Origin: Rubellimicrobium roseum | GTDB taxonomy: Bacteria > Pseudomonadota > Alphaproteobacteria > Rhodobacterales > Rhodobacteraceae | Length of the DNA: 37,455 nucleotides | Direction: 5' to 3' | NCBI RefSeq assembly: GCF_006152145.1 | Contig: NZ_VDFV01000040.1 | Location: forward strand, 1 to 37,455 | In this document: piece by piece, positions 18,110-30,895 of the stretch | How the letters are laid out: every line of letters begins with the position of its first letter | Numbering within the stretch: the stretch's first letter is position 1 | The notes under the pieces: generated by a model | What the model was told of the DNA's origin: nothing | Seen by the model: only the letters and a program-made list of their open reading frames with translations | The model's database searches: none | Made by a program: the position numbers and the translations under genes

Positions 18110-19093
18110 TCAGGCCGTGCGGGGGCGGATGACCCGGCGGCGGAGCGACCGGAGCCGCGCCTCGCGCAGGCCGTCGAGGAAGACGGCGAGCAGGATCACC
18201 GCGCCCTGGAGGAGCGGCTGGAGGTAGAGGTTCACCCCCGAAAAGACGAGTCCGGCCTTGACCGCCTGGATGGTGAGCGCCCCCAGCACCGCGCTGCCCG
18301 CGCCGCCGATGCCGCCGAAGAGCGAGGCGCCCCCCAGGACGGCGGCGGCGATCACGTCGAACTCGCGCCCCTCGCCAAAGCCCGCGTCGAGCCGGCCGAT
18401 CTGGGAGATGAGCACGAAGCCGGCGAGCGCGGCGAGCGTGCCGGAGACGACGTAGACCGTGGCCTGGATGCGGCGGACAGGCAGGCCTGCCTTGGCGGCG
18501 GCCAAGGGGTCGTTCCCGAAGGCGTAGACATGCCGGCCGAAGGCGGTGTGGCGCAGGATCACATGGGCCAAGAGCGCGACGGCGGCGAAGATCAGGATCG
18601 GCACGGGGATGCCCCCGACCGAGGCCAGACCGAAGCTGCGGACCTCGTCCGGGAAGTCGAGCTGGCGCGACTCGGTCAGCCAGGTGCCGAAGCCGCGATA
18701 GAGGAAGAGTGTCGAGAGCGTCACGATGAAGGGGATCACGCGCAGGCCCACGATCAGGACCGCGTTGATCGCGCCGAGGATCGCTCCGGTCGCAAGGCAG
18801 GCCAGGAGGGCGAGTCCCACCCCCGCGCCCGCGTCGCGCATCACGAGGCCGGCCACCAGCGAGCCCAGAAACATCACCGAGCCCACCGACAGGTCGATCC
18901 CGGCCGTCAGCAGCACGAAGACCATGCCCACGGCCGCGATGCCGATGAAGCTCGACTGCTTGACGGTGTTGGCGAGGCTATCGGGGGCGAGGAAGCCGGG
19001 TGTCAGGACACCGAAGACCAGAACGATGGCCACCAGCATCAGCACCGCCCCCATGCGCGTCGCGACGTCGAGAGCGCCTTGAGTCGAGGTCAT
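18110..19093 (-). CDS. Ribose-type ABC importer permease (second permease)
   Basis: This 327-residue inner-membrane protein of the RbsC/AraH family has about eight to ten membrane segments. The family motif GIDLSVGSVMFLGSLVAG appears near 65-82 and the late motif VLGGASLFGGIGGAGSAVLG near 250. It is the last gene of the apiose uptake/catabolism operon and starts in an ATGA overlap with the ATPase stop (19090-19093). It differs clearly from the other permease of the operon, so the transporter probably has two non-identical permeases. Substrate D-apiose is inferred from the surrounding catabolic genes. Confidence 0.9.
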   Translation of the reverse strand: MTSTQGALDVATRMGAVLMLVAIVLVFGVLTPGFLAPDSLANTVKQSSFIGIAAVGMVFVLLTAGIDLSVGSVMFLGSLVAGLVMRDAGAGVGLALLACLATGAILGAINAVLIVGLRVIPFIVTLSTLFLYRGFGTWLTESRQLDFPDEVRSFGLASVGGIPVPILIFAAVALLAHVILRHTAFGRHVYAFGNDPLAAAKAGLPVRRIQATVYVVSGTLAALAGFVLISQIGRLDAGFGEGREFDVIAAAVLGGASLFGGIGGAGSAVLGALTIQAVKAGLVFSGVNLYLQPLLQGAVILLAVFLDGLREARLRSLRRRVIRPRTA

Positions 19094-29068: not shown

Positions 29069-30895
29069 TCAGGCCGGCTGCGCGTCTCCGGTCAGGCGAA
29101 GCGTGGCATAGGCGGGGACCAAGAGGCCGGAGGCGGGGAGGTTAAAGGGCTCCCACCCCCTAGGGCCGGGCGCCAGCCGGGCGGCGGTGGCTATCCCTTC
29201 GGGTCGGGCGATCTCCACGGGCTCGGCGCTGGTATTCGCCAGAAGCACCGTGTGCGTTCCGTCCCGCTCCCAAGCGAGGCCGGCCAGCCCCGGCTCAGTG
29301 GGTGCGGGGCGAAGCCGGGCCCCCTCGGCGGCCGCCACCTCGGCCTGTATGAAGGCCAGCGGCAGGGGGGCTCCATCTTCGTCGCACAGGCCAGTGGGGC
29401 CGGTCGCGTGGAGCGGTGCCAAGGCCTCGGCCCAGGGCAGGGTGCCCGCCAGCGCGCCGACAAGATGCGCGGCGCCAAAAAGGGCGCGGTGGCGTGGGTC
29501 GCGCTCGGCGAGGCAGGTGCGGGTCGTCCCATCCGTCGGGGTCAGGCCGGGGCCGTAGGGGTTGACCGTCGGCGCGAGTGCGAGCGGGCCCGGCCAGAGG
29601 CCGACCCCCGGCACCAGCGCGGCGGCGCTGTCCATGATCGCGGGCAGGACGCGCAGCGTTTCCATGACCGAGACATCGTCGGCGGCATGGACAAGAGGCG
29701 TGACCCCGAAAAAGGCGAAATCGGCCGGAGGCGGCGGGTTGCGGTTGAACTCGGGGAAGAAGGCGGGGACGCCCGCCCCGATCCGCCCCCCGAAGCCCCG
29801 CCGCAGCGCAGCCAGCGTCGGATCGAGAGGCACCTCATCCTCGGGGAGGGTGCCCGAGGGGTGGGTCACGAGATCCCGCGCGGCGGCGACGAGCAGTTCG
29901 GTGACGGGGTGGCCCTCCATCGCTGTGAGACACGCCGCCGCCTCGGTTTCGGGGTGCCTCTGCGGAAAGATCGCCTCGACGGCGAGCGACATGCCCTCGC
30001 GCCCGGCCAGCGCGGCGGCGGCGGCCAGCCGCGCTGCGTCCGGCCGGTCCACCCGCATCCGCAGGATAAGCCCGCGCGCCAGGCCGGGCCGAGGCAGGCG
30101 ATCGGGGATGGGGCGGTCCTCGGCTAACCGGAGGTGCAGGGGCGGCACCGTGGTGCGCCCGGCTGGAACCGTGGCGGAGGCGGCGGCGGTCGCGGAGGGT
30201 CGGCCCGTCAGGCGCAGCGTCACCCGCTGGACCTCCTCCGTCCCCGCCGGGATCATGTAGGGGCGTGGCCAAGCCAAAGGACGGACATAGGTCTTGAAGG
30301 AGGCGTCGGACCAGTTGCGCTGGTCCTCCATCTCCCAGATGCCGCCGTCGAAGCGGACTTCGGCGGTGACGCCAGGCGCGGGCTCGTGCGCGAGCGACAC
30401 GATGTCGATGGCCGGCTGGTCCGGGCTGATCCGCCGGGGGAATGTGGTCTCCTCTGACCCGCCGTCGCCGTGGCCCACGCGCAGGGGCTGTCCCGCCACG
30501 TCGTCGCCATGCAGGACCACGAAGCCCGTGCGGTTGGTCAGGAAGTCCGTACCGGCCGTGGCGGTCGCCTCGAAGGCCAGCGTGCCATCGGCACGGCCCT
30601 CGATCCGGGCGCGGTAGGAGAGACGGCCGGCGGGAGAATCGGCTTGCGCGACATAATGTACGCTGAAGCCGTCGGCGTCCTCGTGCAGGCGTAAATCGGA
30701 GAGGGCCACGGGCAGCGTGCCCCAGGACGCGTCGCGCAGAAGGTAGGCGATCCCGCGCAGGACTTCGGTCCCATGCCAGCGCAGGTCGCGGAGCTGCCCG
30801 GCCTCCAGCACCGCCGACAGAGGGCCTGCGGAGAGACGGCGACGCTCGGCCGGGGGTTCCGGGGTCCCGAAAAGGTCGAGGGCGTCTGGCTGCAT
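29069..30895 (-). CDS. apnL: D-apionate lactonase candidate
   Basis: This 608-residue protein appears to have three parts: an N-terminal beta-rich domain (to about 230, with VHYVAQADSPAGRLSYRARI and FDGGIWEMEDQRNWSDASF), a TIM-barrel-like middle with catalytic-looking motifs (FFPEFNRNPP, TPLVHAADD, ETLRVLP), and a C-terminal beta domain. This matches the domain order of ApnL, which hydrolyses apionolactone to apionate, between ApsD and ApnO. The ATG at 30895 has GGAG six bases upstream; the frame is open 23 codons earlier. It is convergent with the TIM-barrel gene (nine-base gap) and must have its own promoter. There is no signal peptide, so it acts in the cytoplasm. Confidence 0.8.
   Translation of the reverse strand: MQPDALDLFGTPEPPAERRRLSAGPLSAVLEAGQLRDLRWHGTEVLRGIAYLLRDASWGTLPVALSDLRLHEDADGFSVHYVAQADSPAGRLSYRARIEGRADGTLAFEATATAGTDFLTNRTGFVVLHGDDVAGQPLRVGHGDGGSEETTFPRRISPDQPAIDIVSLAHEPAPGVTAEVRFDGGIWEMEDQRNWSDASFKTYVRPLAWPRPYMIPAGTEEVQRVTLRLTGRPSATAAASATVPAGRTTVPPLHLRLAEDRPIPDRLPRPGLARGLILRMRVDRPDAARLAAAAALAGREGMSLAVEAIFPQRHPETEAAACLTAMEGHPVTELLVAAARDLVTHPSGTLPEDEVPLDPTLAALRRGFGGRIGAGVPAFFPEFNRNPPPPADFAFFGVTPLVHAADDVSVMETLRVLPAIMDSAAALVPGVGLWPGPLALAPTVNPYGPGLTPTDGTTRTCLAERDPRHRALFGAAHLVGALAGTLPWAEALAPLHATGPTGLCDEDGAPLPLAFIQAEVAAAEGARLRPAPTEPGLAGLAWERDGTHTVLLANTSAEPVEIARPEGIATAARLAPGPRGWEPFNLPASGLLVPAYATLRLTGDAQPA

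What the first reader, a model, noticed from the sequence alone, without database searches (positions are those of the whole stretch)
18110..30895. Complete oxidative D-apiose utilisation locus in one regulatory unit
ABC importer, ApsD-like dehydrogenase, ApnL-like lactonase, ApnO-like oxidoisomerase, OiaK-like kinase and a RuBisCO-like protein are all present around one GntR/FCD regulator. Each step from D-apiose to a central metabolite can be matched to a gene. The individual families are known from the bacterial apiose pathways. The arrangement seen here, with a dedicated two-permease importer, the RuBisCO-like gene inside the import operon and lactonase on a separate convergent unit, looks worth describing. 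D-apiose comes from plant cell wall rhamnogalacturonan II, apiogalacturonan and apiosyl glycosides, so it also hints at the host's niche.
Basis: partly seen in the sequence, partly recalled or inferred. Interest (0 to 1): 0.82.

Follow-up and report, generated by a model that had tools for sequence, protein, structure and literature searches.

The report
Plant-sugar apiose breakdown gene cluster
This stretch of a bacterial genome carries what looks like a complete gene set for eating apiose, a branched sugar of plant cell walls; the pathway is already known, but this version uses an unusual form of one key enzyme that was found only beside an extra enzyme whose job is unproven.

Summary
Observation confirmed, with corrections. 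Window 18110-30895 holds a two-permease sugar ABC importer, OiaK-like kinase, RuBisCO-like protein (RLP), ApsD-like dehydrogenase, GntR/FCD regulator, ApnO-like oxidoisomerase and ApnL-like lactonase. The oxidative D-apiose pathway is known (Carter 2018, recalled), and ApsD, ApnL, ApnO, OiaK and an RLP lie together in 25 of 127 related loci examined, so the set is not unique. Three points are new or sharper. (1) The RLP is not OiaX: it lies outside a fully supported OiaX clade and keeps a histidine where the 16 OiaX-type proteins examined have glutamine; an OiaT-like transcarboxylase/hydrolase is likelier. (2) The window's ApnO belongs to a separate clade found with the TIM gene in 6 of 6 genomes of the order, against 0 of 40 with only ordinary ApnO. 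(3) A 13-base operator-like site occurs exactly four times in the 4.85-Mb genome, three of them in two intergenic regions of this locus; in a same-genus genome it also precedes an unlinked ApnL-RLP-OiaK operon. ApnL here lacks it. Substrate and products are untested: new variant of a known kind.

The parts
18110..19093 (-). ABC sugar permease 2 (RbsC/AraH type)
   Evidence: NCBIfam GguB 3e-54, RbsC-type 2e-53, below equivalog cut-offs
19090..20604 (-). ABC sugar ATPase, two nucleotide-binding halves
   Evidence: AraG-type 5e-146; overlaps both neighbours by 4 bases
20601..21728 (-). ABC sugar permease 1 (alternative start 21737)
   Evidence: AraH-type 4e-45
21789..22787 (-). periplasmic sugar-binding protein
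   Evidence: Peripla_BP_4 2e-40; 24% identical to the R. etli apn-locus SBP; this SBP class is in 10 of 127 loci, 10 of 10 with ApsD and ApnO
22768..24174 (-). OiaK-like four-carbon-acid sugar kinase (GTG start)
   Evidence: NF042436 410.5 bits, cut-off 700; 40% to the R. etli kinase
24171..25412 (-). RuBisCO-like protein, not OiaX; predicted OiaT-like
   Evidence: PF00016 5e-67; NF042437 408 bits, cut-off 700; outside the OiaX clade; H301 where OiaX has Q
25409..26449 (-). ApsD-like Gfo/Idh/MocA dehydrogenase (TTG start assumed)
   Evidence: PF01408 1e-20; 48% to the R. etli dehydrogenase
26503..26515 (-). operator-like site CTCRTSATACCAG before ApsD
   Evidence: exact match
26520..27254 (-). 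GntR/FCD regulator (NanR-like)
   Evidence: NF003011 262.6 bits, cut-off 260; FCD and GntR Pfam
27294..27306 (+). operator-like site between GntR and ApnO
   Evidence: exact match
27355..27367 (-). operator-like site, inverted, 31 bases before ApnO
   Evidence: exact match
27399..28235 (+). ApnO-like oxidoisomerase of a separate clade (ApnO-B)
   Evidence: PGDH_C 9e-58; only PGDH_C match in the genome; clade support 100/100
28232..29059 (+). xylose-isomerase-like TIM-barrel enzyme, OiaC candidate
   Evidence: AP_endonuc_2 3e-24; E132, D165, H191, E233 invariant in 8 aligned homologues
29069..30895 (-). ApnL-like lactonase
   Evidence: NF049900 371 bits, cut-off 750; no Pfam match at E 0.001 and no PDB sequence match at E 1; model pLDDT 90 with glycosidase-like folds

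Best explanation
This is an oxidative D-apiose catabolic locus of a Rubellimicrobium-like bacterium. The importer brings in apiose; the Gfo/Idh/MocA enzyme (ApsD) makes apionolactone; ApnL opens it to apionate; ApnO-B oxidises C2 and migrates a hydroxymethyl group to give 3-oxo-isoapionate. That product can then take two routes: OiaK phosphorylation followed by the RLP, most likely OiaT-like splitting to 3-phosphoglycerate and glycolate; and/or metal-dependent decarboxylation by the TIM-barrel enzyme (OiaC-like) to L-erythrulose. The GntR/FCD protein binds TSATACCA-type sites and controls GntR, ApnO-TIM and the ApsD-to-permease operon. Shown here: genes, families, layout, clades, linkage, recurrence of the site. 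Inferred: every substrate, every product, regulator binding and repression, and the OiaT and OiaC assignments. Pathway chemistry is recalled from Carter 2018.
For: Gene content. The same enzyme families, except the TIM, at R. etli CFN42 p42f beside an annotated oiaX. 25 of 127 loci examined hold ApsD, ApnL, ApnO, OiaK and an RLP together (two of the 127 stretches overlap). RLP outside the OiaX clade (support 100/100), with H301 in 97 of 97 window-type rows against Q in 16 of 16 OiaX-type rows. LerI and RpiB homologues, which by pathway logic an OiaX product would need, in 3 of 16 OiaX-type and 0 of 98 window-type loci. ApnO-B and TIM in the same 6 of 390 genomes. TIM homologues near ketose-kinase subunits DhaK/DhaL in the 4 non-apn plasmid loci opened, of 21 records matched: adjacent in 3, about 4 kb away and seen only by tblastn in the Klebsiella one. 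Exact operator-like site before an unlinked ApnL-RLP-OiaK operon in same-genus genome G231.
Against: No biochemical evidence. ApnL, OiaK and OiaX models all score under their curated cut-offs. SBP only 24% identical to the R. etli SBP. The ApnO is outside the clade that holds the R. etli ApnO. ApnL has no operator-like site and is not found in the 21 kb held of R. arenae. LerI/RpiB are also missing from 13 of 16 OiaX-type loci, many of them cut stretches, so their absence is weak evidence for OiaT. The window kinase (410) and the R. arenae one (401) score lower on the OiaK model than OiaX-partner kinases (446-473). 5 of the 6 genomes with TIM also have a window-type RLP (63-71%, or the window itself), so TIM does not simply replace the RLP branch.
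Confidence: 0.72

Rival explanations
1. Same pathway, but the RLP works as an OiaX-type decarboxylase and the TIM gene is an isomerase or epimerase that handles a downstream ketose such as erythrulose or its phosphate.
For: OiaX is the best-scoring named RLP model. Foldseek puts the TIM model nearest to ketose 3-epimerases: UlaE, D-tagatose and L-ribulose 3-epimerase. LerI/RpiB homologues are absent from the window, so a replacement isomerase could be useful.
Against: RLP outside the OiaX clade with a fixed His/Gln difference. TIM tracks ApnO-B. The TIM model is only moderate (pLDDT 72, 2 sequences), and the fold with its metal site is shared by enzymes of different function.
Confidence: 0.2
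2. The locus serves a related branched or C4-C5 sugar acid or an apioside, not free D-apiose. ApnO-B would act on another stereoisomer or substrate, and its separate clade and partner TIM reflect that.
For: ApnO-B is split off by a long, fully supported branch with 12 fixed differences. S. meliloti LMB1 and G200 carry both an ordinary ApnO and ApnO-B. RLP-kinase pairs occur in stretches without ApnO, beside LysR, short-chain dehydrogenase and TRAP or KdgT genes.
Against: ApsD- and ApnL-like genes accompany it, and the window genome has no other PGDH_C match. In G167, G352 and the window ApnO-B is the only ApnO found and lies beside OiaK and RLP.
Confidence: 0.18
3. A fortuitous neighbourhood of sugar genes with no shared pathway.
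For: Three curated family cut-offs are missed.
Against: The same enzyme set recurs in 25 of 127 loci; overlapping genes; a shared operator-like site across two unlinked operons in G231.
Confidence: 0.02

Closest known systems
R. etli CFN42 p42f apn/oia locus (NanR, oiaX, OiaK, TPI/LerI-like, RpiB, ApnO, SBP, DUF2291, ATPase, permease, ApsD, ApnL, DhaK, DhaL; enzyme names other than oiaX and NanR are mine by homology)
   Same: ApsD, ApnL, ApnO, OiaK, RLP and a NanR-type GntR; 38-48% identity for these
   Different: Different importer (SBP 24% identical, two permeases instead of one plus DUF2291), non-OiaX RLP, no LerI/RpiB/DhaKL, extra TIM gene, ApnO of another clade
OiaT pathway of Xanthobacter autotrophicus (passage in PMC6302742: RLPs of A. 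radiobacter K84 and X. [quoted passage not shown]
   Same: Proposed product logic; three Ancylobacter species (Xanthobacteraceae) carry window-type RLPs 67-70% identical with OiaK and ApnO
   Different: The X. autotrophicus sequence was not obtainable here, so membership is untested
Rubellimicrobium arenae locus (L075) and genome G167 locus (L047; Jannaschia if my recall of the source of 3c24 is right)
   Same: Importer, ApsD, RLP, OiaK, GntR, ApnO-B and TIM; RLP 87% and 71%
   Different: ApnL not found in the 21 kb held of R. arenae; gene order differs in G167
Rhodobacteraceae strain LCG007 D-apiose cluster (PMC11747546, passages read; growth on D-apiose reported)
   Same: Same bacterial group; lactonase, apiose dehydrogenase, oxidoisomerase, kinase and RLP annotated
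   Different: Its RLP is annotated as the decarboxylase; its sequence was not compared here
PDB 3c24, 'Putative oxidoreductase'
   Same: Best PDB match of the window ApnO (427 bits); a 50-residue stretch is identical to the G167 ApnO-B
   Different: The listing gives no function and no organism

Membership tests
Oxidative D-apiose pathway (ApsD-ApnL-ApnO then OiaK/RLP or OiaC) | All enzyme families encoded together | tested here: met
Oxidative D-apiose pathway (ApsD-ApnL-ApnO then OiaK/RLP or OiaC) | Growth on, induction by or binding of D-apiose | not testable with these tools
   needs bench work
OiaX (3-oxo-isoapionate-4-phosphate decarboxylase) | NF042437 score at least 700 | tested here: not met
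   408 bits; the genome's other copy on C69 scores 781; R. etli OiaX 784
OiaX (3-oxo-isoapionate-4-phosphate decarboxylase) | Falls in the OiaX clade with Gln at window position 301 | tested here: not met
OiaT (transcarboxylase/hydrolase) | Clusters with the characterised X. autotrophicus OiaT | not testable with these tools
   reference sequence not found; no OiaT model appeared in NCBIfam scans
OiaK | NF042436 score at least 700 | tested here: inconclusive
   410 bits, below cut-off; but R. etli (473) and Ancylobacter (561-585) kinases also miss it
ApnL | NF049900 score at least 750 | tested here: not met
   371 bits, its only NCBIfam hit; R. etli 1050 and Microvirga ossetica 899 pass; none of the 6 TIM genomes passes, e.g. 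G167 390, G231 376
ApnO | PGDH_C domain with NAD-binding domain | tested here: met
ApnO | Same clade as the ApnO of the R. etli locus | tested here: not met
   separate 8-row clade, support 100/100, against 74 rows including R. etli
OiaC (3-oxo-isoapionate decarboxylase) | Xylose-isomerase-like fold with metal site (fold of OiaC recalled, not tested) | tested here: inconclusive
   fold and E-D-H-E positions present, but shared with isomerases and epimerases
OiaC (3-oxo-isoapionate decarboxylase) | Similarity to a characterised OiaC | not testable with these tools
   no OiaC model in the NCBIfam hits and no PDB sequence match at E 0.01
NanR subfamily NF003011 | score at least 260 | tested here: met
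   262.6 bits

The most novel reading that the evidence does not exclude
ApnO-B and the TIM-barrel enzyme are an obligate two-enzyme module: a second, long-separated kind of hydroxymethyl-migrating oxidoisomerase that needs its own partner (a new decarboxylase or isomerase acting directly on the oxidoisomerase product). It would make these apiose pathways forked, with an RLP branch to 3-phosphoglycerate plus glycolate and a decarboxylating branch to erythrulose encoded side by side.
Probability: 0.4. Interest if true: 0.6.

Novelty: new variant of a known kind. Interest (0 to 1): 0.42.

Why it matters
RuBisCO-like proteins are often misnamed. This locus gives a simple sequence rule (His or Gln at window position 301) that splits OiaX from the window-type RLP in all rows examined, and both types sit in one genome. 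It also gives a testable clue to a partner-dependent oxidoisomerase and a predicted operator that ties unlinked apiose genes into one regulon. D-apiose is a constituent of RG-II and apiogalacturonan (established knowledge), so the locus hints that the host feeds on plant matter.

Tried and rejected
Rejected: unique arrangement (importer class and enzyme set recur); RLP = OiaX; TIM as a plain substitute for OiaK/RLP, because 5 of the 6 genomes with TIM also hold a window-type RLP and G231 has its ApnL-RLP-OiaK on another contig; missed OiaK cut-off as evidence against the kinase (the R. etli kinase misses it too).

Results against the operator: with up to 2 mismatches the window has 4 matches, and 11 of 100 shuffles reach that; at up to 1 mismatch the genome has 11 matches against 7 for the reversed pattern; 58 of 72 GntR upstream regions lack the core, and 2 of the 14 that have it (L075, L169) were used to derive the pattern. 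The case rests on exact copies in the intergenic regions and on G231.
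Full report
WHAT IS THERE. The window is 69% G+C. Within 18110-30895 eleven genes lie in three groups. Minus strand: GntR/FCD, then ApsD-like, RLP, OiaK-like, SBP, permease-1, ATPase, permease-2, mostly with 4-base overlaps. Plus strand, divergent from GntR: ApnO-like and, overlapping by 4 bases, a xylose-isomerase-like TIM-barrel gene. 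Minus strand, convergent with that pair: ApnL-like. Family matches.

WHERE IT COMES FROM. The best RLP relative listed is Rubellimicrobium arenae, 87% identical, and one genome is flagged as same genus (G231). I infer a Rubellimicrobium-like host, order Rhodobacterales. The window is one contig (C85) of a 4.85-Mb, 155-contig assembly.

FAMILY TESTS. NCBIfam equivalog cut-offs are missed by the RLP (OiaX 408 of 700), the kinase (OiaK 410 of 700) and the lactonase (ApnL 371 of 750). As controls I scanned the R. etli p42f proteins: OiaX 784 and ApnL 1050 pass, but the R. etli kinase (473) also fails, so the OiaK cut-off tells nothing. No ApnO or OiaC model appeared for the window proteins (E 0.001) nor an ApnO model for the R. 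etli protein (E 1e-60). Blastp identity of window to R. etli proteins: ApsD 48%, ApnO 47%, GntR 43%, RLP 41%, OiaK 40%, ApnL 38%, SBP 24%.

THE RLP IS NOT OiaX. The same genome carries a real OiaX (781 bits) on contig C69, beside an oligopeptide-type ABC transporter and without an OiaK-like kinase, and a third RLP on C68 whose best model is MtnW, under its cut-off (148 of 409). In a tree of 70 RLPs the 16 OiaX-type proteins form one clade (100/100), and the window RLP lies outside it. Window-type rows were thinned to about one in three, do not themselves form one clade there, one row (C68) is very long, and the tool notes that the bootstrap had not fully settled. At window position 301, by my recalled numbering the equivalent of RuBisCO His327, 97 of 97 window-type and 14 of 14 intermediate RLPs have His, and 16 of 16 OiaX-type have Gln; position 299 is His in 95 of 97 against Gln in 16 of 16. 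Homologues of the R. etli triose-phosphate-isomerase-like and RpiB genes, which would process an erythrulose phosphate, are near 3 of 16 OiaX-type RLPs and 0 of 98 window-type RLPs (Fisher p 0.002; stretches differ in length and relatedness is not corrected). PMC6302742 (passages read) says that the X. autotrophicus RLP is a transcarboxylase/hydrolase and the A. radiobacter one a decarboxylase; three Ancylobacter species, of the same family as Xanthobacter, have window-type RLPs. The OiaK model scores kinases beside window-type RLPs of Ancylobacter, Microvirga and Methylobacterium (557-585) above OiaX-partner kinases of Rhizobium, Sinorhizobium and Shinella (446-473), but the window kinase (410) and that of R. 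arenae (401) score below both, and L042 scores 492, so this hint is weak. I favour OiaT-like chemistry at about 0.6. It stays an inference, because the characterised OiaT sequence was out of reach.

AN ApnO CLADE TIED TO THE TIM GENE. Two searches each drew 390 genomes of the order (same handle range, so I take them as the same set): TIM at E 1e-30 is found in 6 and ApnO at E 1e-50 in 46. The ApnO identities split with a clear gap: 66-100% in exactly those 6 genomes, at most 53% otherwise. So 6 of 6 genomes with this ApnO-B have TIM, and 0 of the 40 with only ordinary ApnO do (Fisher p 1e-7; 5 genera, not independent). In 119 neighbourhoods ApnO-B is in 7 loci, all 7 with TIM (one, S. meliloti LMB1, also has an ordinary ApnO), and ordinary ApnO alone is in 66, none with TIM; 4 of the 7 were found with TIM as query. 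A wider draw of 385 genomes of the class gave ApnO in 4, the window and three ordinary ones. The tree of 82 rows separates the 8 ApnO-B rows from 74 others, including R. etli, by a branch of 0.84 changes per column on their side of the midpoint root, support 100/100, with 12 fixed differences. The genome has no other PGDH_C match, so ApnO-B must do the oxidoisomerase step if the pathway runs. S. meliloti LMB1 and G200 carry both types.

WHAT TIM MAY DO. Its presumed metal ligands (E132, D165, H191, E233) are invariant in 8 aligned homologues. In the 4 non-apn plasmid loci that I opened, of 21 records matched, DhaK/DhaL ketose-kinase genes lie near: adjacent in R. tropici, Shinella and Pasteurella, about 4 kb away in Klebsiella (tblastn only). 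In R. tropici a 3-hydroxyisobutyrate-type dehydrogenase and an alpha/beta hydrolase lie beside it. An acid oxidised to a beta-keto acid, decarboxylated to a ketose and then phosphorylated fits this, so I favour an OiaC-type decarboxylase (about 0.55). The structure model (pLDDT 72) is nearest to ketose 3-epimerases, so an isomerase or epimerase is not excluded. The genome has one full DhaK with DhaL (C114) and a DhaK cut by a contig end (C98), neither on the window contig. Of the 6 TIM genomes, 5 also have a window-type RLP; G155 has only a weak, distant RLP match (63 bits, about 30%).

REGULATION. Reading the intergenic DNA of the window, R. arenae and G231 contig C1 gave CTCRTSATACCAG. Exact copies: three in the window at 26503, 27294 and 27355, out of four in the whole genome; the fourth lies within a frame that reads, by eye, like cysteinyl-tRNA synthetase. 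R. arenae has two exact copies between ApnO and GntR, and G231 one there and one before ApsD. The test case is G231 contig C23, not used to derive the pattern: an exact copy lies 30 bases before the called start of an ApnL-RLP-OiaK operon on a different contig. Upstream of GntR the core TSATACCA is in 14 of 72 loci against 45 of 3600 random stretches. The window ApnL and the C69 OiaX stretch have no site. Controls against are listed under Tried and rejected.

IMPORTER. The window SBP class occurs in 10 of 127 loci, 10 of 10 with ApsD and ApnO; the R. etli SBP class in 12, 12 of 12 with ApsD and 9 of 12 with ApnO; 38 of 127 loci have ApsD at all. Two importer classes thus seem to serve one pathway. 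I recall that PDB 5ibq, among the SBP hits, is an apiose complex of the R. etli protein; no call checked that.

ApnL. No Pfam or PDB sequence match. A confident model (pLDDT 90, 15 sequences) shows an N-terminal beta domain, an alpha/beta part and a C-terminal beta domain; the closest folds are glycoside hydrolases, and F380, E382, N384 and R385 are invariant in the 15 aligned.

KNOWN OR NEW. The pathway is known. LCG007, a Rhodobacteraceae strain, grows on D-apiose with an annotated cluster (PMC11747546, passages). E. coli lineages carry an apiose cluster like that of Pectobacterium, without its apsI isomerase gene (PMC13001218, section 19 and passages). Searches of the open library listed no title or abstract start on an ApnO subclade or its TIM partner; Carter 2018 could not be read, so whether it already notes a TIM-type OiaC beside ApnO is unknown to me. 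Verdict: new variant of a known kind.

Noticed in passing
G000 contig C69 (L008:10372-11646): A bona fide OiaX (781 bits) sits beside an oligopeptide-type ABC transporter and a transposase-like remnant (judged by eye), with no OiaK near it; the genome's only close OiaK and only PGDH_C match are in the window.
   Followed up: partly
G000 contig C68 (L009:322-6973): A short RuBisCO-like protein (369 aa, best model MtnW but under its cut-off) follows a split transketolase pair and a ribose-type ABC transporter: possibly another uncharacterised RLP pathway.
   Followed up: partly
L167:12928-13866 and 16100-17320 (genome G155): Two in-frame chimeric frames, ApsD front plus OiaK end and ATPase front plus permease end, look like deletions, the first taking out the RLP; loss of the branch or an assembly error.
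   Followed up: no
G000 contig C109 (L215:4654-5760): A 368-aa protein matches only the C-terminal part of the ApnL model (59 bits) and has no Pfam match.
   Followed up: no
L053-L063, L073, L074: RLP plus OiaK-like kinase pairs with no ApnO in the stretch held; in L073 and L074 LysR, short-chain dehydrogenase and TRAP or KdgT genes lie beside them, suggesting RLP pathways for other sugar acids.
   Followed up: partly
window 7734-16131: Next to the locus: a GH2-type glycosidase, a solute-binding protein and MalK-like ATPase of a second sugar ABC transporter, and a LacI regulator.
   Followed up: no
window 16135-17385: 416-aa membrane-like protein with no Pfam match between the two sugar loci.
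   Followed up: no
L047 / PDB 3c24: The PDB entry 3c24 (putative oxidoreductase) appears to be an ApnO-B from a locus with ApnL, ApsD, RLP, OiaK and TIM.
   Followed up: yes
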